A DNA stretch of 42,570 bases from Alphaproteobacteria bacterium. Lineage in GTDB: Bacteria > Pseudomonadota > Alphaproteobacteria > Rs-D84. A model generated the notes under the pieces. The model did no database searches. It was not told the DNA's origin and was given only the letters and a program-made list of their open reading frames with translations. Location of the stretch: NCBI GenBank assembly GCA_024402815.1, contig JAKSTB010000004.1, positions 1 to 42,570 on the forward strand. Direction: 5' to 3'. A program made the translations under genes and the position numbers. Each line of letters begins with the position of its first letter. Position 1 is the first letter of the stretch. Below, piece after piece: positions 18,348 through 28,478 of the stretch.

Positions 18348-20444
18348 TTATTTATCGGCAACCTCGATTTTACCGTCCTCTCCTATTTTAACCACCCCCT
18401 TGGTTTCCAAGGCTTCACACAACTGTTTGAATCTGACGTTTTCATCCAAAGCGCCCGTCAGAGTATCTTTCAGATTTGCCTCTGTAACCAAATTGCTTGG
18501 CAATTTTGCAGATACTGCTTCATCTAAACCTTTAATGTCAGATGCAGAATATTTACCATCACTGTCAAACTTGTTCATAACTGCGGTTAATTTATCACTT
18601 CTTTCAACAAAATTACTTGTCAGATTTTGTATTGTTGTATTTGTTGCAAAAGTACTGTCTGCATATTGTTTTGCACTGTCGATTGCTTCATTTTTTGCTG
18701 TCGAAAGATCGCCCAATTTAGCATATTCAGAAGCCACAGCGTTCAATGCTTCTGTTTTTGCACTGTCGATTGCTTCCTGTTTTGCTGTCGAAACATCTGT
18801 CAATTTAGCATAGTCTTTCAAATCAGAACTTGTCAAAACACCCGTTAGTCTTTCGTTTATAATTGAGTCAGTATAATTTTTTGCTGTATTAATACTTGAA
18901 GAAACATCTTCCGATTTAGCATAGCCTTCCAAATCAGAACTTGTTAATTTTTTTGCCAACGCTTCTGACAAACCGTCAACTTTGTCTTGTGATATTTTGC
19001 CGTTTGTGAAATATGTTCCAACGGTTTTAACTTCTTCGATATCTTTACGATCTTGTGCTGTTAAACCTTCGCCGTTTTGTCCATTTTCACCCTTTTCACC
19101 TTTGACTTTGCCCAAATTTACAAATTCAGCACTGCTGTCTTTGTCTGCTTTGTACATAAGGTTTTCACCTTCGATTTTAAATGTTGGGACTTTCGCGTCT
19201 TGACCTTTCAAATCGGCAATATCAACCAATTTTTGCAGGTTACCGCCTTCGCGTTTCCATTTAATTGCATTGTCATCAACTTCAATGCTGATTTCTTTTG
19301 CATCTTGACCTTTTAAATCAGCAATATCAACGATTTTGTGTGAGCTTTCACCTTCACGTTTCCATTTGATTGCACCATCATCAACTTCAATAGTGATTTC
19401 TTTCGCATTTTCTCCATATGGAATATATTTGGTGTCGGTTTCATTTGTGCATGAATTGGTTGTTGTAACCTTCATTTGTCTGTTCACAGAATCTGGTTCT
19501 GTGGCAACGCTGGAAGAACATCCCGGAGTTCCGCCCAAATCAGCGATATCTGCAAATTTGTGTTGGGTTGAATCGTTGCCGACAGAGAATTTAACCTGTT
19601 TTGCATTTTGATCAACTGTAAATTTCAAATCACCCAAAGTGTTCGTAATATCGTTTTTGGATGCCAAATTCTTGGTTGTTACATAATAATCTAAATATGT
19701 AGTGTCATCCTTTTTAACAGCTTTGGCCAATTCTGTATCATGTCCGTCAACGCGGTTTTTTAAAGTGACGATAGTGTCATTTGAAGCCAAATTGCCAACA
19801 GCATCAGATATTGCGGAAGTCAATTGTGGTTGTTCAATCTTTTTACTTAATTTAGTATCAACTTGGTTGGCCAGATTTGCAATTTTTGTATCCATAGCAT
19901 TGCTGATTGTTTCGTTCGAAGCCAAATCTCTGACTGCGTTGTCAACTGTTTGGTTCAAAACATCTTGGCTGACCATATTGTTTTTCGCTTCTACAATTGC
20001 TTGGGCTGCTTCTGTTCTAATATTAGTCAATTGTTGATCTACATAATTCTGTGTTGCCAATGCAACGAAATCATTTTGTAAAGATTCTAATTGTTCCCGC
20101 AAGCTGTTCAATTCAGTAGAGGCAGAAGAAGAAGATATTTTAGAATTAGTTGCTTTTGTATTATGAGATGATTTTCCAGCAGCAAAAGGAACACCAACTA
20201 AACGGGCTGCGGTATCGCCAGATGTGGCGGTTGTCGTTGTTGATGTTGTTGCGGTTGGTTTTGCAACAGGTTTTACCGCTGTAGTTGTTGCGGCACGTTC
20301 AATATTCGATTCGGATGATTTAGCACTATTTGTTGCAGACGATGTGGCCACGCCAATTTGTCTGATGCTGGGGGTTGCAAATGCGTTTGTGCCGAAAATA
20401 GCGAACATTGCAAAGATACTTGTAAAAAGTTTTGATATGGACAT
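18348..20444 (-). CDS. Secreted repetitive coiled-coil protein, putative surface fibre
   Basis: A 698-residue exported protein. The signal peptide runs to about residue 23 (LFTSIFAMFAIFGTNAFA, then TPSI). A Thr/Ala/Ser-rich linker covers about 25-105 and a coiled coil begins at about 107 (LNSLREQLESLQNDFVAL). Around residues 275-450 come four degenerate beta repeats of about 36 aa. Two are nearly identical (EVDDGAIKWKREG, VDIADLKGQDAKE; about 344-417). A short collagen-like Gly-X-Y run (KGEKGENGQNGEG) follows, then long Ala/Asp/Lys-rich helices with recurrent LTSSDLxxYAK and AIDSAK units. The mix resembles phage tail-fibre or adhesin stalks. There is no YadA-type membrane anchor or LPXTG, so attachment is unclear. 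AAGGAAGGG supports the start. A promoter (TTGATA-18-TAGATT, 20505-20476, minus strand) lies upstream. Confidence 0.82.
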   Translation of the reverse strand: MSISKLFTSIFAMFAIFGTNAFATPSIRQIGVATSSATNSAKSSESNIERAATTTAVKPVAKPTATTSTTTTATSGDTAARLVGVPFAAGKSSHNTKATNSKISSSSASTELNSLREQLESLQNDFVALATQNYVDQQLTNIRTEAAQAIVEAKNNMVSQDVLNQTVDNAVRDLASNETISNAMDTKIANLANQVDTKLSKKIEQPQLTSAISDAVGNLASNDTIVTLKNRVDGHDTELAKAVKKDDTTYLDYYVTTKNLASKNDITNTLGDLKFTVDQNAKQVKFSVGNDSTQHKFADIADLGGTPGCSSSVATEPDSVNRQMKVTTTNSCTNETDTKYIPYGENAKEITIEVDDGAIKWKREGESSHKIVDIADLKGQDAKEISIEVDDNAIKWKREGGNLQKLVDIADLKGQDAKVPTFKIEGENLMYKADKDSSAEFVNLGKVKGEKGENGQNGEGLTAQDRKDIEEVKTVGTYFTNGKISQDKVDGLSEALAKKLTSSDLEGYAKSEDVSSSINTAKNYTDSIINERLTGVLTSSDLKDYAKLTDVSTAKQEAIDSAKTEALNAVASEYAKLGDLSTAKNEAIDSAKQYADSTFATNTTIQNLTSNFVERSDKLTAVMNKFDSDGKYSASDIKGLDEAVSAKLPSNLVTEANLKDTLTGALDENVRFKQLCEALETKGVVKIGEDGKIEVADK

Positions 20445-20549
20445 TTTCCCTTCCTTTGTTTGTTGTTTTATTGATAATCTACCCTTTCGTTGATGAAGTT
20501 ATCAAAAAATGTAAAATCAATGCAAGATAAAAATCAAATAGTAAAAATA

Positions 20550-20578
20550 TTGGACAAATAATATGTTGGTGTTATGAT
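20550..20578 (+). promoter_or_regulatory. Sigma-70-type promoter for the 20612 gene
   Basis: TTGGAC at 20550-20555, a 17-base spacer and TATGAT at 20573-20578. Confidence 0.5.
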
Positions 20579-20611
20579 TTTATGGGTAAAAACAAGGGAT
20601 AATTATTCGTC

Positions 20612-20890
20612 ATGACAGATATTGACCAGACAAAAGTTTTTGCGGTTGTTGGAACACCAAACATGGGATATGAAATTTATATGTTGGAATTTGTGAAATA
20701 TATGGAAGCAGAAATATCGTTGAGATACGAAGCGGTAGAACATATTGATATTCCAATGTACCCACCAAGACACAGAAGACGTTATATGAATATGTGTCGT
20801 GCCAGAAATCATTGGCCACGTGCATGCCATTACAGAAACAGAGTATTGAACCGCCAAATGCGTTTATTACAAAAGAAAGATTGTAGATAA
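20612..20890 (+). CDS. Small Arg-rich hypothetical protein
   Basis: A 92-residue protein. The first half (VFAVVGTPNMGYEIYMLEFV) looks like a small beta-alpha unit. The second half is extremely basic (YPPRHRRRYMNMCRARNHW, then RACHYRNRVLNRQMRLLQKK), with three Cys at about 69, 79 and 91, and could bind nucleic acid. The family is not recognised. A good promoter upstream and a perfect terminator immediately after the stop argue that it is a real single-gene unit. It ends in Cys-Arg, recalling the Arg-ended Cys-rich proteins at 23248-24845, though no alignment is claimed. Confidence 0.7.
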   Translation: MTDIDQTKVFAVVGTPNMGYEIYMLEFVKYMEAEISLRYEAVEHIDIPMYPPRHRRRYMNMCRARNHWPRACHYRNRVLNRQMRLLQKKDCR

Positions 20891-20895
20891 AAAAG

Positions 20896-20919
20896 ACCAG
20901 GTTTTAACCTGGTTTTTTA
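20896..20919 (+). terminator. Rho-independent terminator
   Basis: Perfect stem ACCAGGTT-TT-AACCTGGT at 20896-20913 followed by TTTTT, eight bases after the 20612 gene's stop. Confidence 0.88.
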
Positions 20920-20978
20920 TTTCTCCGGATTTTGGAAATCTGTAAATTGTTTTTTAAGAAATCCAAAGATTTTATTTC

Positions 20979-21052
20979 TGGTGCGGGCGAAGGGAATCGA
21001 ACCCTCGTCTAAAGCTTGGGAAGCTTTCGTGCTACCATTATACCACACCCGC
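20979..21052 (-). tRNA. tRNA-Gly (anticodon CCC)
   Basis: The minus strand folds into a full cloverleaf. The acceptor GCGGGTG/CGCCCGC (21052-21046 with 20989-20983) has one T-G pair. The D arm contains GGTATAATGGTAGCAC. The anticodon stem AAAGC/GCTTT has loop TTCCCAA, giving anticodon CCC at 21020-21018. The T arm is AGGG-TTCGATT-CCCT. Discriminator A at 20982 is followed by an encoded CCA (20981-20979). It reads GGG glycine codons. A promoter (TGGACA-17-TAAAAT) lies upstream on the minus strand. Confidence 0.95.
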
Positions 21053-21064
21053 AAAGTGTTAATC

Positions 21065-21093
21065 ATTTTATATGGTTTAAAAATAAATGTCCA
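21065..21093 (-). promoter_or_regulatory. Promoter for tRNA-Gly
   Basis: On the minus strand, TGGACA (21093-21088), a 17-base spacer and TAAAAT (21070-21065), about 13 bases before the tRNA 5' end. Confidence 0.6.
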
Positions 21094-21184
21094 GTTAAAA
21101 ACTTGTGATTTTTATGAATTCTGGATTGAATACAGATAAATTTCTGGTTCACAATATAAAACGTAAAATCAAGGTGTTAAGGAC

Positions 21185-21760
21185 ATGACAAACAAAGATA
21201 TTTATGATGTGTTGTATGATACCAGAGTGATGTTGGATAAAATGGGCAAAGAAAAAGTCAAACAAATTCTGGAACTTTTGATGTCTGTCCAACGTAAACA
21301 CAGGTGTGTTTTTATTAATTCGGTAGATTTAGTCAAATATACAAAAAAACTTCTGACAAATTTGATGAAATACAACAATTTAGTAGAGGTGTTTAATCGA
21401 AAAAAGATGAAGCAGTTATATACTATATTGGCTGATTATCAAATTTATCCAATATGTCAGTTGTGTGGAAAAACCATAAAACAGTATTCAAATAATAAAC
21501 ACCCTATGGAATTTTCGTGGGATCATAAAATCCCAAAATCTCTTGGTGGCCCCAGCGAATTATATAATTTACAGCCAACCCACAAGCTGTGTAATAACCG
21601 CAAAGGAAACGATACTTTATTTGTTATCCATTACGAGATAGATGTGGTGGTTGGTGCAAATGGAAATGTAAATGTAACCGAACAAGCCAAACAATACAGA
21701 CAATATAATCTGCACAAGAACAGATATTGGAAACAATACAGAAATGATTTTTACAGATAA
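21185..21760 (+). CDS. HNH endonuclease domain protein
   Basis: A 191-residue protein. Residues 1-85 are helical and Lys-rich with no known domain. A zinc-finger HNH nuclease domain spans about 88-145: CQLC (91-94), WDHKIPKSLGG with Asp113-His114, LYNLQPTHKLCNNRKG with Asn128, His133, Cys136 and Lys140. Both Cys pairs needed for the structural zinc and the DH/N/H catalytic set are present, so it should be active. The tail is basic. It resembles host or phage HNH nucleases, but no phage, intron or restriction genes flank it, so its role (DNA repair, defence or a remnant of a mobile element) is open. Confidence 0.87.
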   Translation: MTNKDIYDVLYDTRVMLDKMGKEKVKQILELLMSVQRKHRCVFINSVDLVKYTKKLLTNLMKYNNLVEVFNRKKMKQLYTILADYQIYPICQLCGKTIKQYSNNKHPMEFSWDHKIPKSLGGPSELYNLQPTHKLCNNRKGNDTLFVIHYEIDVVVGANGNVNVTEQAKQYRQYNLHKNRYWKQYRNDFYR

Positions 21761-21773
21761 ATGTAATAATCAT

Positions 21774-21802
21774 TTGACTTTTCAATGTTTTTATAACATA
21801 AT
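21774..21802 (+). promoter_or_regulatory. Promoter for the small RNA / rpsP leader
   Basis: TTGACT at 21774-21779, a 17-base spacer and CATAAT at 21797-21802. The expected transcription start is near 21809. Confidence 0.6.
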
Positions 21803-21808
21803 TGCCCT

Positions 21809-21902
21809 GCAAATCCCAAAGATTGCCATTACTGAAACCCCTGTGTGCGGTATGCACAAGGAACATCAACCGGCGAGTTTTCGCTCTTGATGGCGTTTTT
21901 TT
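21809..21902 (+). ncRNA. Candidate structured small RNA or attenuator leader of the rpsP operon
   Basis: About 94 bases between a good promoter and an intrinsic terminator, with no ORF. Three hairpins can be drawn. The first is GCAAATC/GATTGC (21809-21826). The second is built on TGTGC/GCACA around GGTAT (about 21838-21861). The third is a terminator stem, CATCAA (21864-21869) with TTGATG (21887-21892) plus inner GCGA/TCGC, ending in a seven-T run at 21896-21902. No signature of SRP RNA, 6S RNA or tmRNA is visible. It is either a free-standing sRNA or a premature-termination leader controlling the rpsP-rimM-trmD-rplS operon, whose first start is 72 bases downstream. Confidence 0.5.
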
Positions 21903-21973
21903 GTATGCGTTGTCGCGGGAAACAAGATAAAAAACAGATAAACTGAACATAGAACAAAATAAAGGAGTTTAAT

Positions 21974-22471
21974 ATGGCAACAGTTATCAGATTGGCACGT
22001 TATGGTGCAAAAAAACGTCCTTATTACCACGTGGTCGTCACAGATTCCAGAAACGCACGTAATTCTGGTAATATTTTGGAAACAGTTGGTAAATATAATC
22101 CAATGTTGGCTAAAACTGACGAAAAACGCGTTATTTTGGATATCGAAAAAATCAAAGCGTGGATGGGCAAAGGTGCAAAACCATCTGACCGTGTTTATAA
22201 ATTCTTGGTAAATGCAGGCGTAGTTGCTGCAAAACCAATTCCAAATCAAACAAAGAAAAATCAACCTTCTGAAAAAACTCAAATGAAGGCAAAAGACAAA
22301 GCGGATAAATTAGCAAAAATCGCTGAAGAAAAAGCCGCAGCAGAAGCAGCAGCCAAAGCAGCCGCCGAAGCCCCAGCCGAAGAACCAGCCGCTGTCGAAG
22401 AAACTCCAGCAGAAGCTCCAGTTGAAGCACCTGCAGAAGAAACACCTGTAACAGAAGAACAAGCTGCGTAA
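21974..22471 (+). CDS. rpsP: 30S ribosomal protein S16 with long acidic C-terminal tail
   Basis: The first ~80 residues are canonical S16: VIRLARYGAKKRPYYHVVV, DSRNARNSGNILETVGKYNP, KIKAWMGKGAKPSDRV. After about residue 85 comes a low-complexity tail, first Lys-rich (KTQMKAKDKADKLAKIAEEK), then Ala/Glu/Pro-rich (EAPAEEPAAVEETPAEAP). This brings it to 165 aa, about twice the E. coli length. Ala/Glu tails on S16 occur in Alphaproteobacteria; this one is at the long end. AAAGGAG precedes the ATG. It is the first gene of the operon, and its stop overlaps the next start (TAATG). Confidence 0.96.
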   Translation: MATVIRLARYGAKKRPYYHVVVTDSRNARNSGNILETVGKYNPMLAKTDEKRVILDIEKIKAWMGKGAKPSDRVYKFLVNAGVVAAKPIPNQTKKNQPSEKTQMKAKDKADKLAKIAEEKAAAEAAAKAAAEAPAEEPAAVEETPAEAPVEAPAEETPVTEEQAA

Positions 22472-22755
22472 TGAATATTACACCATATGTTTATGATAAA
22501 AACGATATAGTTTGGCACCCAAATCAAAAATATACTTATGCCCAATATCACCAAGCGCTGAATGAGGTTTTTGATTGGCTGTATTTCAAAAATGCCGAGA
22601 ATCGCTTTAATCTGATTGGTTCATACAGAATGAATCTTAGAAATATGGTGTTGTATGCTGTTGAAAACAATATAGACGAAATAGAATATATAAAAAGTCT
22701 TCGTACTATATTGGCGAAAGATGCAGGTTGTGTCGATTTACAACGTGGAATGTAA
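22471..22755 (+). CDS. Small hypothetical protein inserted between rpsP and rimM
   Basis: A 94-residue protein beginning MNITPYVYDKNDIVW. Its ATG shares a base with the rpsP stop codon, so it is translated by coupling. It is soluble and aromatic-rich in the first half (YTYAQYHQALNEVFDWLYF), then helical (NLRNMVLYAVENNIDEIEYI). It has a single Cys and no zinc motif, so it is not an obvious member of the Cys-rich family downstream. rimM begins six bases after its stop. No function is recognised. Confidence 0.75.
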   Translation: MNITPYVYDKNDIVWHPNQKYTYAQYHQALNEVFDWLYFKNAENRFNLIGSYRMNLRNMVLYAVENNIDEIEYIKSLRTILAKDAGCVDLQRGM

Positions 22756-22760
22756 AAGAC

Positions 22761-23225
22761 GTGCAAAACGATAAAAAAATTTTGGTTGGAAAAATTGTTG
22801 CCCCCCAAGGTATCAGGGGCGAATTCCGTGTTCAGACATTTACTGAAAAACCACTGGATTTTAAAAAACTGGCGGTTTTCAGCGATAATGTTGTGGCCAA
22901 AGATTTTCATTTTGTCCGCCCTGTTCCAAATTCAAACGTAATTATCGCCAGAATTGACGGTGTAAACGACAGAAATACTGCAGAAACATTACGAGGAACC
23001 CAGTTATTTATATCCAGATCAGATTTGCCTGAATTACACAATGGCGAATATTATCAATCTGATTTAATCGGTTTTTCCGTTGTCCAAGATGGTAAAACAA
23101 TAGGTATAGTTGATTGTTTTCAAAATTTTGGCGCGGGTGATATTATTGAATTAGATAATGGTGATATGGTGTCTTTCCATGATGCCCAGGTGGATTTAGA
23201 CAAAGGTATAATAACAATCAAATAG
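22761..23225 (+). CDS. rimM: Ribosome maturation factor RimM
   Basis: 30S assembly factor that binds S19 during maturation of the 16S 3' domain. The GTG at 22761 is chosen: it is just after the preceding stop, GGAA lies 10 bases upstream, and it gives MQNDKKILVGKIVAPQGIRG, the usual RimM N-terminus; upstream codons would overlap the previous gene. The 154 residues include the RimM domain (APQGIRGEFRVQTFTEKP, ETLRGTQLFISRSDLPEL) and the PRC-barrel with GEYYQSDLIGF. It is slightly shorter than typical (about 170). trmD, its usual neighbour, has been pushed 1.6 kb away by the Cys-rich genes. Confidence 0.93.
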   Translation: MQNDKKILVGKIVAPQGIRGEFRVQTFTEKPLDFKKLAVFSDNVVAKDFHFVRPVPNSNVIIARIDGVNDRNTAETLRGTQLFISRSDLPELHNGEYYQSDLIGFSVVQDGKTIGIVDCFQNFGAGDIIELDNGDMVSFHDAQVDLDKGIITIK

Positions 23226-23247
23226 ATAATCCAAAGGAAAATAAAAC

Positions 23248-23487
23248 ATGTACAGACCTACAAATGTGCAAATAAGTGTCCAAAAATGTCCAGACGGCAT
23301 CAGCGACAAAGATTGCGAAAGAAATCGATATATTGCAAGAGAAACAGGTTTATATCAAATGAATGGTGGTTTGATTATTTATACAAAACCTTATTTTAAA
23401 AATCGTTCCGCATATGATTGGGGAAATGCAAAGATGGCAAAAATATGCGCTGAATGTCAATTACGTAATGGCAAGGGACAAAGATAG
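23248..23487 (+). CDS. Cys-rich small protein 1 of the rimM-trmD insertion
   Basis: 79 residues, preceded by AAAGG. Cys14 (in QKCPDG) and Cys23 form an N-terminal pair, and Cys67-x2-Cys70 (KICAECQLRNGKGQR) a C-terminal one. Between them is a probably beta-rich stretch (GLYQMNGGLIIYTKPYF). The four-Cys layout is typical of small zinc-binding folds, and C-terminal ICxxC followed by a basic tail ending in Arg recurs in its neighbours. No known family is recognised. It lies 22 bases after rimM in the same orientation, surely co-transcribed with the ribosomal and tRNA methylation genes, so a role linked to translation or RNA is a guess from context only. Confidence 0.75.
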   Translation: MYRPTNVQISVQKCPDGISDKDCERNRYIARETGLYQMNGGLIIYTKPYFKNRSAYDWGNAKMAKICAECQLRNGKGQR

Positions 23488-23495
23488 GTTAAACG

Positions 23496-23702
23496 ATGCC
23501 ACTGTTTTATGTTAACGGGCGATATGTGCTCGATAAAAAATGTTTGTTTGAATTAAATAGGTGCCCTGCGTATAGATATGTGATGGACAATTCTTCTGTG
23601 CACAGTGTAAGCCAGGGCACAGTTAAAGCAACCGTGTTCGGTCGGGAAAAATTTGCAAGTGACATAAGAAAAATATGTGCTTCGTGTGGTAAACAACGCT
23701 GA
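23496..23702 (+). CDS. Cys-rich small protein 2 of the rimM-trmD insertion
   Basis: 68 residues, the smallest and most compact member. Cys16-x6-Cys23-Pro (KKCLFELNRCPAYRYV) and Cys61-x2-Cys64 (KICASCGKQR) are its only cysteines, exactly four, as expected for one zinc site. The middle (GTVKATVFGREKFASD) is probably a beta hairpin and the segment before ICASC a helix. It begins eight bases after gene 1, with AGG upstream of the ATG. It ends in Arg like all five members. Confidence 0.75.
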   Translation: MPLFYVNGRYVLDKKCLFELNRCPAYRYVMDNSSVHSVSQGTVKATVFGREKFASDIRKICASCGKQR

Positions 23703-23717
23703 TAAAGGGATGATTTT

Positions 23718-23832
23718 ATGAAGGCAGAAATTGAATTACAACAAAGAATGTGATGTTGATTCAAATTTGTGCCCTGTCCGATCTAAAACGTTAAATAAAC
23801 ATACTAAGGAATTTGAACCATGGAAAAGATAA
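23718..23832 (+). pseudogene. Frameshifted, truncated copy of a Cys-rich gene
   Basis: The first 30 bases (23718-23747) match the start of the 24145 gene (24145-24174) with one mismatch, encoding MKAEIELQQR. The frame then hits TGA at 23751. Removing one A from the AGAATG at 23745-23750 would restore QQRC followed by DVDSNLCPVRS, the family's C-x6-C-P motif, and a frame open to 23832. The C-terminal CxxC is missing, so the copy is both frameshifted and truncated. It overlaps the start of the next gene. Confidence 0.6.
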
Positions 23833-24128
23833 AAAATATAAATATGAATTTTGTTAAGCCACCTTTCATGGGAAATGCAGAAAGATATCGTATGCATTGT
23901 CATTTTAAACTGGAAGGTTCAGATCATCATGTATTAGATGTCTATGATTGCAATAATATCAAATATTTAAACAGTAAAGGTGTGGAAATCAGAGTTTCGT
24001 TCAGTATCGGTAATGATGTGTTTGTTTGTCAGCCAGAAGACAGTGATCATTTGTTTGATATAGCAATGTTCAAACAGAATTGTAAAGATTGCCAACATAG
24101 AAACTATGCAGGTCGAGGCAGTAGGTAA
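23820..24128 (+). CDS. Cys-rich small protein 3 of the rimM-trmD insertion
   Basis: 102 residues, with AAGGA before the ATG. The C-terminal half follows the family: a hydrophobic strand (VEIRVSFSIGNDVFVC), a helix and Cys88-x2-Cys91 (NCKDCQHRNYAGRGSR), ending in Arg. The N-terminal pair is looser than in its neighbours (Cys27 and Cys44, with a His-rich segment GSDHHVLDVYDC between), so metal ligands may include His. It is probably a diverged paralogue. The function is unknown. Confidence 0.72.
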   Translation: MEKIKNINMNFVKPPFMGNAERYRMHCHFKLEGSDHHVLDVYDCNNIKYLNSKGVEIRVSFSIGNDVFVCQPEDSDHLFDIAMFKQNCKDCQHRNYAGRGSR

Positions 24129-24144
24129 AAGTAAGGTACAGATA

Positions 24145-24531
24145 ATGAAAGCAGAAATTGAATTACAACAAAGATGTCCATGTGGATTGACTGATTGTGA
24201 AATATACAGACAAATACCATTGACCGCCAAAGCGACAGATCAAGATGTATTCACTGTATCCAAAACAGTCAACAGTAATGGATTTAGAGGCGTAGAACCT
24301 TTGTACGCTCTGTTGCAACCAAAAAACAGATATACAGATAACAATAAAGTCATAGAAACTTTGCGACATATGAATAACACGTGTACGGAATGCCGTGCAA
24401 AACATCCTGTGTACACATGGGATAAAAGATTTCGCCCTGCCAGAATTCGTGTCAATTTTTTGGCTTTGGCTTGTGCAGATGAAATCTATGGGTATTGTGT
24501 TCAAAATCATTTAATCAACCCAGGAAGATAA
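24145..24531 (+). CDS. Cys-rich small protein 4 of the rimM-trmD insertion
   Basis: 128 residues from the ATG at 24145. A start at 24106 is possible but would overlap the previous gene, while the 24145 site matches the duplicated start in the pseudogene at 23718. Cys11, Cys13 and Cys18 lie in QRCPCGLTDCEIYRQ, the first and third giving C-x6-C. The C-terminal pair is TCTEC, followed here by about 40 extra residues (RFRPARIRVNFLALACADEI) with two more Cys, ending in PGR. It is the longest member, as if a family domain gained a tail. No function is recognised. Confidence 0.73.
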   Translation: MKAEIELQQRCPCGLTDCEIYRQIPLTAKATDQDVFTVSKTVNSNGFRGVEPLYALLQPKNRYTDNNKVIETLRHMNNTCTECRAKHPVYTWDKRFRPARIRVNFLALACADEIYGYCVQNHLINPGR

Positions 24532-24548
24532 GATAATACAAAGAAAGA

Positions 24549-24845
24549 ATGACAGATAAAATGAAAGAATTTTATGTGACATCAAAAGACGAAGAAGTAA
24601 AAACGGCAAAATATAATGCCACTATGGTTTGTTGGAAAAATTGTACAACATCTGTGGGAAAATGTCCTGGTGTTCAATATTTTTTTGCATTCCCAGTTAG
24701 TTTTAATATTGATGAAAATGACAAGGATACATATATATTCAATTTTCCAACATCTGTGAAAATTGATGAAATCAGAGAACACGTTCATCGCGTACAGAGG
24801 TTGTGCAGATATTGCAACAAATGTACTTTCGGTTATTGGAGATAA
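24549..24845 (+). CDS. Cys-rich small protein 5 of the rimM-trmD insertion
   Basis: 98 residues. Cys28, Cys32 and Cys39-Pro lie in VCWKNCTTSVGKCPGV, the last two giving C-x6-C-P. Cys86, Cys89 and Cys92 lie in RLCRYCNKCTFGYWR at the very C-terminus. The middle (YIFNFPTSVKIDEIREHV) is a strand and helix as in the paralogues. An alternative ATG lies at 24561, but both leave the Cys motifs intact. It is the last Cys-rich gene; trmD starts 17 bases later, so the insertion is transcriptionally continuous with the housekeeping operon. Confidence 0.73.
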   Translation: MTDKMKEFYVTSKDEEVKTAKYNATMVCWKNCTTSVGKCPGVQYFFAFPVSFNIDENDKDTYIFNFPTSVKIDEIREHVHRVQRLCRYCNKCTFGYWR

Positions 24846-24862
24846 AAAACAGAGTAAAAACA

Positions 24863-25546
24863 ATGCATTTTAACATTTTAACTATTTTTCCAGAAATGTT
24901 TCCAGGAACCCTGTCAGGAGGGGTTGTTGGACGTGCATTGGATAAAAAGATTTGGACATATGATGTTATAAATATTCGTGATTTTGCTACGAATAACTAT
25001 GGCAGTGTCGATGACGAACAATTTGGTGGCGGTGTCGGTATGGTTATGATGCCCGAAGTATTGGGTGCGGCCATAGATTCTATAAAAAATCCTGGAAAAA
25101 TCATATATTTTTCCCCACGTGGCAGAACATTAAATCAAAAAATGGTCCGTGAATTTGTTAATGAACCTGATGATCAAGTATATACCCTGCTTTGTGGTCG
25201 GTATGAAGGTATTGACCAAAGGGTGATTGAAGAGTATAATATAACGGAATTATCTATTGGGGATTATATCTTGTCTGGGGGCGAAATTGCAGCACAAGTT
25301 TTTATTGACAGTGCCGTTCGTCTGTTAGATAATGTATTGGGTGGTGGTGATGAAGCCACTCAAAACGAAAGCTTCGAAATCGGCGGGTTAGAATGGCCAT
25401 TATATACCCGTCCGTCAGTATGGCGTGGACATAAAGTCCCAGAAGTCCTGCTGTCCGGTCATCACGGCAATATTGAAAGATGGCGGAAACAACAATCGGA
25501 CGAAATAACCAAAGAACGTCGTCCGGATTTAATAAAGGAAAACTAA
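24863..25546 (+). CDS. trmD: tRNA (guanine(37)-N1)-methyltransferase TrmD
   Basis: SPOUT-family enzyme that makes m1G37 next to the anticodon and prevents +1 frameshifting. The ATG at 24863 gives the typical N-terminus [20 protein letters not shown]; in-frame codons upstream would run into the preceding gene. The 227 residues contain [18 protein letters not shown], the trefoil-knot SAM motif [29 protein letters not shown], and the C-terminal [20 protein letters not shown]. It is a little short at the C-terminus compared with E. coli (255). It is followed one base later by rplS. Confidence 0.96.
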
Positions 25547-25547
25547 A

Positions 25548-25937
25548 ATGAGCATTATTAAAAAAATTGAACAAGAACAAGTTGCTAAATTGAAAGGTAA
25601 CAAAGTAATACCTGATTTTAAATCTGGTGATACTGTCAAAGTTCATGTCAAAATTAAAGATGGGGACAAATTCCGTATCCAAATTTTCGAAGGTGTTGTA
25701 ATTGCACGCGACGGTGGAAACGGAAATAATGCTTCGTTCACAGTTCGCCGTGAATCTTACGGTGTTGGTGTGGAACGTAAATTCCCATTGTATACCCCAG
25801 CAATCGAAAAAATCGAAAAAGTTCGCGTCGGTAAAGTCCGTCGTTCGAAATTGTTCTATTTGCGTGGATTGTCTGGCAAAAAGGCTCGTATTGTTGAAGA
25901 TTTGTCTGCTAACGCTGCTAAATCTGAAGACAAATAA
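25548..25937 (+). CDS. rplS: 50S ribosomal protein L19
   Basis: 129 residues with the L19 core: [77 protein letters not shown]. It bridges the 30S and 50S subunits near the decoding side. It is the last gene of the rpsP-rimM-trmD-rplS operon; the start is one base past the trmD stop with AAGGAAAAC upstream. The envelope gene at 25963 follows after 25 bases without a visible terminator, so readthrough is possible. Confidence 0.97.
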
Positions 25938-25962
25938 TTATTTAAAACCAAAGGATATTGAA

Positions 25963-26322
25963 ATGAACATTTCTAAAATGTTGTGTTTATTTGTTTTATC
26001 CTTTGGTTTTTTCTATATATTCCCAGGTTTTGCATATGTTGACCAAGGTAATGCCGTCGTTCGTATTATGGACAAAGCCGCAGGTAAAACCCAGATCGTA
26101 TCTTTGCCAGTTAACAAAACTGTTCATTATGATGGTTTGACTTTGATAACCAGAAGTTGCAAACAAACTGATCCGTTTGATGCAGAAAATTATTTTGCGT
26201 TTCTTGAAATTTACACTAAATCAGACAATCGTATTTTCAGTGGTTGGATGAACAGAAATGAACCTGGTCAAAACCCATTGCAAAATGATGTGTATGATGT
26301 CTGGTTGGAAAAATGTGAGTAA
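25963..26322 (+). CDS. DUF2155 domain protein, exported
   Basis: A 119-residue exported protein. The ATG at 25963 is chosen because AAGGAT precedes it and it yields a signal peptide (MLCLFVLSFGFFYIFPGFA, cleavage near residue 24). The mature part matches DUF2155 as found in Alphaproteobacteria: AVVRIMDKAAGKTQIVSLPV, TLITRSCKQTDPFDAENYFA, RIFSGWM, YDVWLEKCE. The two Cys may form a disulfide. The family's function is not known to me; it is periplasmic and often linked to envelope genes. It starts a tight run of envelope genes ending in tsaD. Confidence 0.85.
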   Translation: MNISKMLCLFVLSFGFFYIFPGFAYVDQGNAVVRIMDKAAGKTQIVSLPVNKTVHYDGLTLITRSCKQTDPFDAENYFAFLEIYTKSDNRIFSGWMNRNEPGQNPLQNDVYDVWLEKCE

Positions 26323-26327
26323 AAACA

Positions 26328-26660
26328 ATGCCAAAAAGTAAATTGCAAAAAATAAAACGTATTATCAAAATTTCATTGGCTGGCTTTGTTTTGATTGTTT
26401 TAATTATTTTGGGATTTTTTGTAAAACCAACCTACACTTTTGAAAATTCCAGTTTGGTAAAATGGCCTTCGTTGTCTGAATCACAACAGGTTGCAACCGT
26501 TAAACGTGTTATTTCAAAAAGCACTGACCAAGATTTGTTGTTGGAATGTGTTACAAAAATTGCAGAATTACCAGATTCTGCCAAGATGGATATTCGTGAT
26601 GCTATTGTTTTGTGCTATAATGGTATTAAATTAAATACAACCGAAGATAATGAAAAATAG
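26328..26660 (+). CDS. Single-pass membrane protein, function unknown
   Basis: A 110-residue protein: a basic N-terminus (MPKSKLQKIKRIIKI), one transmembrane helix at about 15-33 (LAGFVLIVLIILGFF), then a periplasmic domain (QQVATVKRVISKSTDQDLL, DSAKMDIRDAIVLCYNG). The family is unrecognised. It begins five bases after the DUF2155 gene and overlaps the lipoprotein gene by 11 bases, so all three are translationally coupled. Confidence 0.75.
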   Translation: MPKSKLQKIKRIIKISLAGFVLIVLIILGFFVKPTYTFENSSLVKWPSLSESQQVATVKRVISKSTDQDLLLECVTKIAELPDSAKMDIRDAIVLCYNGIKLNTTEDNEK

Positions 26661-27351
26661 TTTCTTTGCAATTTTAATCGCTTTGTTTGTGATCGGCTGT
26701 TCAAAAGTGCCGGCCGATAAATATATTGGCTATAAATATTTGGGTGCAAAATATGTTAACGAACCTTTGGGCGAAGAAAAACTGCCTGATACAGACCCAC
26801 TGATAAGATTTGATGCGTTTGATTGTGTAACATTTGTTGAAACCGCTTTGGCTGACGGTGATTTGGAAAAATTGACTAAAATCAGATACAAAGACGGCGA
26901 TATCGATTTTGTAAACCGCAACCATTTTACTGAATTAGATTGGGTGCAAAACAATAAAGACATTGTTGAAAATATCAGCAACAAATATGGTAAAACAAAG
27001 TTTCGCGAATTTGTTGTGGATAAACAATCTTGGTTTAAAACGGTTCATGATATAGATGTCAAAGTTCCAAAACAATCTGGAAAATTGGAATATATACCAT
27101 ATGCCGAATTACAGAATATAACTACAGACAAACCTTTGGTGGTTTTGTTTGTTATAAACAATCCAAATTTAGTAAAGAAAATTGGAACGGACGTTTCTGT
27201 GGCACATCTGGGATTTTTGTTGCCAAATGGCATGTTAAGACACGCATCCAGCCAACATACTCGTGTTTTAGATGTAGATTTCAAAGAATATGTTGATGAA
27301 CGTATGAAAAACAAAAATAATTTGGGGATAGCATTGCTAGAAATAAAATGA
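26650..27351 (+). CDS. DUF1460-like lipoprotein, probable cell wall amidase
   Basis: A 233-residue lipoprotein. The signal ends in a lipobox-like FVIGC with Cys17 as the lipidation site. The body resembles the DUF1460 family (NlpC/P60-like fold, linked to peptidoglycan amidase activity): FDAFDCVTFVETALA with putative nucleophile Cys59, VNRNHFTELDWVQNN, and SVAHLGFLLPNGMLRHASSQ with putative catalytic His186. Cys and His are both present, so it is probably active. It would sit on the inner face of the outer membrane. It overlaps the membrane protein gene before it and tsaD after it (ATGA). Confidence 0.78.
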   Translation: MKNSFFAILIALFVIGCSKVPADKYIGYKYLGAKYVNEPLGEEKLPDTDPLIRFDAFDCVTFVETALADGDLEKLTKIRYKDGDIDFVNRNHFTELDWVQNNKDIVENISNKYGKTKFREFVVDKQSWFKTVHDIDVKVPKQSGKLEYIPYAELQNITTDKPLVVLFVINNPNLVKKIGTDVSVAHLGFLLPNGMLRHASSQHTRVLDVDFKEYVDERMKNKNNLGIALLEIK

Positions 27352-28478
27352 GTGAAGAAAAAATTATTCGTATGGATATGGGAAAAAATACAGAACATGA
27401 ACACATTGGAAATGAAAAAACTGTGTTGTGTTTGGGCATAGAATCATCCTGTGATGAAACCAGTGCCGCCATAGTCGACAGCGACAGAAATATATTGGCA
27501 CATATTATTTATTCCCAAATTCCTGAACACCAAAAATATGGTGGGGTCGTTCCTGAATTGGCCGCCCGCGCGCATATTTTGGCTGTGGATGAAGTTATTC
27601 GTTTAACACTGGAACGCGCAGGCAAAAGCATAGATGACATAGATGTAATTGCTGCAACTGCGGGACCGGGGTTGATTGGTGGTGTTTTGATTGGTTGGAT
27701 GTCTGCAACGGGTATAGCAAATGCAAAAAATAAACCTTTGGTTGCCGTTAATCATTTGGAAGGACATGCATTGGTGCCACGTTTATGTGCCGCATCTGCC
27801 AGTGATTCTGCAACAAATATCAATGTCGAATTTCCTTATTTATTGATGTTGGCTTCGGGTGGACATTGCCAGATTTTATTGGTTCATAATGTTGGTAAAT
27901 ATGAATTGATTGGGCAAACTTTGGATGACAGTGCCGGTGAAGCCTTTGACAAGGTTGCAAAAATGTTGGGACTGGGGTATCCTGGCGGTCCAATTGTGGA
28001 TAAACGTGCCCAGTTGGGCAATGTAAAAAGATTCCATTTCCCACGTCCGTTGTGTGATAAACCTGGATGTGATTTTTCGTTTTCAGGTATTAAAACAGCG
28101 GCCAGAATGTTATTGGATAAAACTCCACAGACAGATATAAATGAAGAATTTATAAATGATTTTTGTGCATCTTTCCAACAATCTGTCGTTGATTGTATAA
28201 CAAATCGTTTGACTAATGCATTAAAGGATGTACGGGTACGCAAAGCCGCACCTAAAACTATGGTTGTTGCGGGCGGTGTTGCCAAAAACAGTGCTATACG
28301 TTCCGCGATGGAAGAATTGGCAAAACAATCAAATATGTTGTTTGCTGCGCCACCAATGAATTTGTGCACAGATAACGGTGCGATGATTGCTTGGGCTGGA
28401 ATCGAAAATTACAGGGTCGGTAATATTGTACATGAACCTGTGGCACCCCGCCCCCGTTGGCCGTTGACAGAATTATGA
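27348..28478 (+). CDS. tsaD: tRNA N6-threonylcarbamoyladenosine synthase subunit TsaD
   Basis: Kae1/YgjD-family ASKHA protein that transfers the threonylcarbamoyl group to A37 of ANN-decoding tRNAs, with TsaB and TsaE. The 376 residues include the nucleotide motif LCLGIESSCDETSAAIVD (28-45), the metal-binding HLEGH with His136 and His140, ASGGHCQILLVHNVGKYELI, DDSAGEAFDKVAKMLGLGYP, VVAGGVAKNSAIR, and CTDNGAMIAWAG with the third metal ligand Asp. The N-terminus is about 20 residues longer than usual; the start is kept because ATGA overlaps the lipoprotein stop. Its 3' end overlaps the convergent unknown gene by six bases. Confidence 0.95.
   Translation: MSEEKIIRMDMGKNTEHEHIGNEKTVLCLGIESSCDETSAAIVDSDRNILAHIIYSQIPEHQKYGGVVPELAARAHILAVDEVIRLTLERAGKSIDDIDVIAATAGPGLIGGVLIGWMSATGIANAKNKPLVAVNHLEGHALVPRLCAASASDSATNINVEFPYLLMLASGGHCQILLVHNVGKYELIGQTLDDSAGEAFDKVAKMLGLGYPGGPIVDKRAQLGNVKRFHFPRPLCDKPGCDFSFSGIKTAARMLLDKTPQTDINEEFINDFCASFQQSVVDCITNRLTNALKDVRVRKAAPKTMVVAGGVAKNSAIRSAMEELAKQSNMLFAAPPMNLCTDNGAMIAWAGIENYRVGNIVHEPVAPRPRWPLTEL

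What the first reader, a model, noticed from the sequence alone, without database searches (positions are those of the whole stretch)
23248..24845. Family of five small Cys-rich genes inserted in the rpsP-rimM-trmD-rplS operon
Seen: between rimM and trmD, normally adjacent or nearly so, lie five short same-strand ORFs of 79, 68, 102, 128 and 98 aa, tightly spaced. Four have an N-terminal Cys pair, with C-x6-C in three of them, followed by Pro in two. All have a C-terminal C-x2-C and all end in Arg. Spacing between the pairs and sequence in the middle vary widely. Inference: a tandemly duplicated, fast-diverging zinc-binding family whose expression is tied to ribosome and tRNA-modification genes. 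The function could be RNA or ribosome binding, or something unrelated that uses a constantly expressed locus. I recognise no named family.
Basis: partly seen in the sequence, partly recalled or inferred. Interest (0 to 1): 0.78.

Follow-up and report, generated by a model that had tools for sequence, protein, structure and literature searches.

The report
Fast-changing Cys-rich cassettes inside ribosome operon
In one genus of tiny-genome gut bacteria, two junctions of an essential ribosome-making operon are packed with small, unknown, fast-evolving genes, most of them cysteine-rich, that species gain, lose and swap one at a time; their products look like folded, probably zinc-binding proteins, but what they do is not known.

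Summary
Five same-strand ORFs (79, 68, 102, 128, 98 aa) lie between rimM and trmD, with the stated Cys pairs and C-terminal Arg. They are real genes. Against a sister species, substitutions favour third codon positions and dN/dS is 0.2-0.5 (0.06-0.07 for rpsP, rimM and trmD).

Four of the five belong to one family (A) with four invariant Cys across 51 aligned sequences. The genus is Candidatus Enterousia (reduced-genome gut Alphaproteobacteria, order Rs-D84). Family A was absent from 288 other class genomes, and in other families of the order the junction is closed.

In Enterousia, 79 of 82 operons carry inserts. Families A and D sit only in rimM-trmD; B and C only in rpsP-rimM; trmD-rplS never has any. 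Cassettes are lost, replaced and swapped singly between species, and neighbours sometimes fuse. Unrelated insert families share a C-terminal Arg (57% of proteins versus 6% of other large ORFs).

No Pfam, NCBIfam, PHROGs, PADLOC or PDB relative was found; AlphaFold gives a confident small fold without a match.

Best reading: a hypervariable cassette locus, translationally linked to ribosome production, probably serving biotic conflict or partner interaction. Zinc binding is likely but untested; ribosome binding is neither supported nor excluded.

The parts
21974..22471 (+). rpsP (bS16), upstream core gene
   Evidence: conserved in all operons compared
22471..22755 (+). insert of family C (94 aa, helical, Cys-poor) in the rpsP-rimM junction
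   Evidence: cluster; model pLDDT 86; dN/dS 0.22 against L070
22761..23225 (+). rimM (GTG start; the sister species has ATG here)
23248..23487 (+). ORF1, family A, 79 aa, C-x8-C ... C-x2-C, ends R
   Evidence: HMM hit in G000, (E 1.2e-12); 89% identical in L070
23496..23702 (+). ORF2, family A, 68 aa, C-x6-CP ... C-x2-C, ends R; a divergent allele (48% identity) relative to the sister species
   Evidence: AlphaFold model pLDDT 81.5
23718..23821 (+). remnant of a further cassette: start like ORF4, then pieces of the L070 gene-2 allele (CDVDSNLCP...), frame broken after 11 codons
   Evidence: repeat; alignment with L070
23820..24128 (+). ORF3, family A (divergent), 102 aa, ends R
   Evidence: E 2.2e-7
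24145..24531 (+). ORF4, 128 aa, CPCxxxxC ... CxxC then KRFRPARI extension, ends R; only marginally similar to families A and B (E 0.01 and 0.006)
   Evidence: a relative in L037
24534..24548 (+). footprint of an 83-aa cassette that is intact in L070 and missing here
24549..24845 (+). ORF5, family A, 98 aa, C-x6-CP ... CxxC-x2-C, ends R
   Evidence: HMM hit E 1.4e-13; 91% identical in L070
24863..25546 (+). trmD
   Evidence: Pfam PF01746 E 3.5e-45
25548..25937 (+). rplS (bL19); the trmD-rplS junction carries no insert in any species compared
   Evidence: Pfam PF01245

Best explanation
The inserts form a hypervariable cassette locus inside an essential ribosomal-protein operon. SHOWN by sequence comparison: in Candidatus Enterousia the rpsP-rimM and rimM-trmD junctions each hold their own set of small protein-coding families; the cassettes are under purifying selection but evolve several times faster than their neighbours; they are lost, replaced and exchanged singly between species; adjacent families are sometimes fused; unrelated families share a C-terminal Arg/Lys, mostly Arg. 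INFERRED: the genes are co-transcribed and translationally coupled with the operon, so the products are made constantly in step with ribosome synthesis. Cassette exchange uses homologous recombination in the conserved flanking genes, which would keep each pool of families in its own junction. Each family-A protein is a compact beta-beta-alpha-beta-beta-alpha domain held by one Cys4 zinc site. Neighbouring products act together. The function is most likely in biotic conflict or partner interaction (an effector-, decoy- or immunity-like set of intracellular or exported proteins) rather than a core step of translation, because such functions commonly show this turnover and allele swapping and core translation proteins do not.
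For: Junction-specific families: all 80 classified family-A ORFs and all 19 D ORFs lie in rimM-trmD, all 52 B ORFs in rpsP-rimM; 79 of 82 operons carry inserts; trmD-rplS gap -14 to 3 nt throughout and no inserts; junction closed in other families of the order. Family A confined to the genus: 1 of 20 genera in the order, 0 of 288 other class genomes; B likewise 1 of 20 genera. Strong family-A hits in genomes G000-G034 fall at the operon. Protein-coding: dN/dS 0.2-0.5 in the window against L070 versus 0.06-0.07 for rpsP/rimM/trmD; codon-position bias. Single-cassette exchange: in L116/L117/L132 the gene next to trmD is 94-100% identical between L116 and L132 but 69-81% to L117, although L117 and L132 are the closer pair in most of the flanks; window against L070, ORF2 is 59-63% identical between flanks of about 93%. 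Loss: remnants in the window of cassettes intact in L070. Fusions D+A, C+C+B, helical+A, helical+D. C-terminal Arg 57% of inserts versus 6% of 416 large ORFs, 58% when weighted over 94 clusters, p about 1e-28, regardless of distance to the next gene. Four invariant Cys in 51 sequences; model pLDDT 81.5, pTM 0.67. Median stop-to-start distance 2 nt. Published: genus in order Rs-D84, genome reduced, order predicted to be obligate symbionts or parasites (PMC12306168).
Against: No expression or biochemical data. The biotic-conflict role is an argument from evolutionary pattern, and no partner, phage or host link was found (no PADLOC hit). An expression link to the ribosome operon is unusual for effectors. 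Fusions in metagenome-assembled genomes could in part be assembly or indel errors. The ORF sets come from simple ORF calling, so a few of the 206 ORFs are doubtful.
Confidence: 0.42

Rival explanations
1. The inserts are lineage-specific ribosome- or RNA-associated accessory proteins (assembly, hibernation or translation modulation): small, basic, Cys4 zinc domains made stoichiometrically with bS16 and bL19.
For: Location in the rpsP-rimM-trmD-rplS operon in nearly all species of the genus; net positive charge, median +4 for A and +3 for B; Cys4 pattern, which recalls zinc-containing ribosomal proteins; junction-specific retention.
Against: Core translation partners evolve slowly, these do not. 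Copy number 0-5 for family A, with three species lacking any insert. Cassette swapping. bL31 is present in its own right, so the inserts do not replace it. No fold match to ribosomal proteins.
Confidence: 0.25
2. The inserts are substrates of the genus's conserved type IV secretion system; the short basic C-terminal tail ending in Arg is the export signal.
For: VirD4-type coupling protein in 57 of 59 relatives including all listed Enterousia; VirB10-like protein in the window's genome with a neighbour that looks VirB9-like by eye (no family test run); unrelated families share the Arg/Lys tail; reported Arg motif in the C-termini of Agrobacterium VirB/D4 effectors (review PMC10025392); predicted symbiotic or parasitic life.
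Against: VirD4 occurs throughout the order, the inserts only in one genus. In many family-A proteins only 4-5 residues follow the last Cys, which seems too short for a secretion signal. The VirB4 model PF03135 found nothing in this genome. Lys/Arg at the C-terminus is generally favoured in bacteria (PMC7246954).
Confidence: 0.12
3. The inserts are near-neutral products of local gene birth and decay in a reduced genome, kept because deletions in the operon are risky.
For: Loss and remnants; presence/absence patchy on the tree; no homologues outside the genus.
Against: Purifying selection, invariant Cys across very divergent sequences, confident folds, junction-specific families over the whole genus and C-terminal Arg. 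Empty junctions exist, so the inserts can be lost.
Confidence: 0.1
4. The DNA acts mainly at the level of translation: each short ORF ends in a slow codon plus stop and couples or gates translation of rimM and trmD; the peptides themselves matter little.
For: Median stop-to-start distance 2 nt; 85% of terminal Arg codons are AGA, CGA or AGG.
Against: The same terminal codon bias is seen in other genes ending in Arg (21 of 26); Arg enrichment does not depend on distance to the next gene; protein sequence is under selection.
Confidence: 0.06

Closest known systems
Hypervariable cassette loci between conserved flanking genes (for example capsule or O-antigen loci, from general knowledge)
   Same: Conserved flanks, variable content, locus-specific pools, single-cassette allele replacement
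   Different: Here the cassettes are tiny proteins, most without a signal peptide, inside one essential ribosomal operon, in two junctions with non-overlapping families, and unrelated families share a C-terminal Arg
Zinc-binding small proteins and Cys4 zinc domains (bL31, DksA/TraR finger, zinc ribbons; from general knowledge)
   Same: Two Cys pairs, one of them C-x2-C, in a small basic protein
   Different: First pair mostly C-x(5-10)-C with Pro after it in about half, roughly 30-60 residues between the pairs; no Pfam, PDB-sequence or fold match; bL31 is encoded elsewhere in the genome
VirB/D4 type IV secretion substrates
   Same: Basic, Arg-containing C-terminus and a conserved coupling protein in the genome
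   Different: Very short tail, small genes in a ribosomal operon, export untested

Membership tests
Family A (defined here) | Match to the family HMM and two Cys pairs, the second C-x2-C | tested here: met
   ORF1, ORF2, ORF3 and ORF5 match (E 1.2e-12, 7.5e-10, 2.2e-7, 1.4e-13); ORF4 only marginally (E 0.01)
Zinc-binding protein | Bound Zn2+ through the Cys residues | not testable with these tools
   Only Cys invariance and a compact model support it
bL31 ribosomal protein | Match to PF01197 | tested here: not met
   No such Pfam match for the inserts; the genome's bL31 lies on another contig
BFD-like [2Fe-2S] domain and other named Cys families | Match to a Pfam or NCBIfam model at its cut-off | tested here: not met
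Known anti-phage defence proteins | Match to a PADLOC model | tested here: not met
   only one weak match (E 0.0096) for the Cys-poor ORF at 22471
Phage protein families | Match to PHROGs | tested here: not met
   (one of 51 members at E 0.0028)
Type IV secretion substrate | Export dependent on VirD4 | not testable with these tools
   Machinery partly present; PF03135 VirB4 model not found
Known fold class | Significant structural match | tested here: inconclusive
   Best Foldseek E 2.2 in PDB, 0.16 in BFVD; VIA-align best Z 2.6
In-place tandem duplicates | Neighbours in one genome are each other's closest relatives | tested here: not met
   3 of 41 proteins only, all in L123; none in the window

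The most novel reading that the evidence does not exclude
A previously undescribed modular system: two junction-specific pools of small folded proteins, several families of them unrelated, made in step with ribosomes, marked by a common C-terminal Arg that a shared cellular receptor, protease or exporter reads, assembled into complexes of neighbouring cassettes (as the fusions suggest), and diversified by cassette swapping under an arms race.
Probability: 0.2. Interest if true: 0.85.

Novelty: new variant of a known kind. Interest (0 to 1): 0.6.

Why it matters
Essential ribosomal operons are among the most stable gene neighbourhoods in bacteria. A genus that uses two of their junctions as a swap-in slot for fast-evolving proteins would show a way to give variable, possibly conflict-related genes constant strong expression and a protected position. 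The families are unnamed, recur in 79 of 82 operons of a genus common in farm-animal guts, and the C-terminal Arg shared by unrelated families gives a simple, testable handle on how they work.

Tried and rejected
Rejected: inserts as replacements of bL31 (bL31 present); Shine-Dalgarno or A-rich initiation region as the cause of C-terminal Arg (no dependence on distance to the next gene; core genes with close downstream neighbours end in Arg in only 6%); special slow Arg codons (same bias in other Arg-ending genes); a spread of family A through the genome (all four family-A HMM hits in G000 are in the window; a look-alike at L168:3117-3362 matches at E 0.02-0.04 and has no relative in 58 other Enterousia genomes; L174:1316-1630 has a signal-peptide-like start and looks like a chance Cys match). 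Led nowhere: family A in viral contigs (pattern too diverse to search); fold searches of both models (no significant match, which does not show that the folds are new); solved-structure sequence searches; Rfam over 20400-27400 found only a tRNA; literature on inserts in this operon (one search gave nothing relevant).

Full report
WHAT IS THERE. ORF4 starts at 24145 (128 aa). Between ORF2 and ORF3 lies a broken cassette: a 44-nt stretch repeats the start of ORF4, then loses frame, and the following bases match the beginning and end of a gene that is intact in the sister species. A further, Cys-poor insert of 94 aa sits between rpsP and rimM (22471-22755).

THE ORGANISM AND THE NEIGHBOURHOOD. 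A search with TrmD returned a 98% identical sequence from a yak reticulum MAG (L070) and about 80 relatives, several named Candidatus Enterousia, mostly from ruminant and other animal guts. A published study places the genus in order Rs-D84 with genomes mostly under 1 Mb and predicts an obligate symbiont or parasite life for the order (PMC12306168). In other families of the order rimM and trmD overlap or lie within 26 nt. In Enterousia the rimM-trmD gap is up to 2.1 kb and holds up to six small ORFs, the rpsP-rimM gap up to about 1 kb, while trmD-rplS is always closed. Of 82 complete operons, 79 carry at least one insert.

FAMILIES. Most of the 206 insert ORFs fall into family A (80 ORFs, all in rimM-trmD), B (52, all in rpsP-rimM), D (19, all in rimM-trmD) and a helical family C in rpsP-rimM; the rest are smaller groups. 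ORF1, ORF2, ORF3 and ORF5 are family A; ORF4 is distant. Family A was found in 1 of 20 genera of the order and in none of 288 other class genomes sampled; B in 1 of 20 genera of the order. None matches Pfam, NCBIfam, PHROGs or PADLOC at a meaningful level. The four Cys of family A are invariant in 51 aligned sequences whose mean column identity is only 15%; these members had been chosen to hold a C-x2-C near the C-terminus, so the invariance of that pair is partly by selection.

ARE THEY GENES. Between the window and L070 the core genes rpsP, rimM and trmD have dN/dS 0.06-0.07; ORF1, ORF3, ORF4 and ORF5 have 0.21-0.46. Substitutions fall at codon positions 35/23/60 (p = 1e-4). Other close pairs give mostly 0.1-0.5. 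They are therefore very probably translated and constrained, but fast.

TURNOVER AND SWAPPING. Relative to L070, the window lacks an 83-aa cassette (a short footprint remains near 24534), carries a remnant of another, and has a different allele of ORF2 (59-63% DNA identity between flanks near 93%). In L116/L117/L132 a single cassette breaks the species relationship: L116 and L132 share it at 94-100% while L117 differs at 69-81%, although L117 and L132 are the closer pair in most of the flanks. This is best explained by exchange of one gene between species. The closest relative of a family-A protein is in another genome for 38 of 41 proteins from genomes with several copies, so recent in-place duplication is the exception.

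FUSIONS. Several inserts are in-frame fusions of families that otherwise are neighbours: D+A (L093, L129), C+C+B (L101), a helical family + A and another helical family + D (L126), A+A (L120), C+C (L045) (assignment of the halves is by eye from the sequences). This suggests joint action; assembly errors are not excluded for single cases.

C-TERMINAL ARG. Arg ends 57% of inserts (58% weighted over 94 clusters at 40% identity) against 6% of 416 large ORFs sampled from the genome (p about 1e-28). It is equal for inserts close to and far from the next gene and occurs in families A, B, D and the rest. The codons used follow the genome's general preference before stop. It is therefore a residue-level trait. 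Lys/Arg at C-termini is favoured in bacteria, and Lys raises expression in Mycoplasma (PMC7246954); here the preference is for Arg.

STRUCTURE. AlphaFold on ORF2 with 51 sequences gives pLDDT 81.5, pTM 0.67, order E-E-H-E-E-H, with one Cys pair before helix 1 and the other at the end of helix 2. Family C gives a helical model at pLDDT 86. Neither has a significant match.

MECHANISM. Shown: variable, constrained, junction-specific, swapped cassettes. Inferred: co-transcription and translational coupling (same strand, median spacing 2 nt; no plus-strand terminator-like site inside), zinc binding, joint action, and a biotic-conflict or partner-interaction role. A type IV secretion link is possible, since a VirD4-type protein is found in 57 of 59 relatives and a VirB10-like protein in this genome, but the tail is short and the VirB4 model was not found. 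A ribosome-associated role remains the main rival.

Noticed in passing
window 21185-21760 (+): HNH endonuclease-like ORF of 191 aa (PF01844 E 2.8e-10) just upstream of rpsP, also ending in Arg.
   Followed up: partly
window 20979-21052 (-): tRNA-Gly (ccc) between a small ORF and the HNH ORF upstream of the operon.
   Followed up: no
window 18348-20444 (-): Secreted-looking 698-aa protein with repeated and coiled-looking stretches, possibly a surface fibre.
   Followed up: no
L170:7920-10220 and L172:8236-10713: VirD4-type coupling protein and VirB10-like protein in the reduced genome; VirD4 is present in 57 of 59 relatives searched.
   Followed up: partly
L168:3117-3362: Stand-alone 81-aa ORF with a family-A-like Cys layout (E 0.02-0.04), followed by a terminator-like hairpin; no relative in 58 other Enterousia genomes.
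   Followed up: partly
L164:3210-3647: 145-aa Cys-rich ORF beside a gyrase/topoisomerase-like gene, ending in QKNQGR like the inserts.
   Followed up: no
L077:5638 onward: A family-A-like insert with a lipoprotein-type signal sequence at its start, unlike the other inserts.
   Followed up: no
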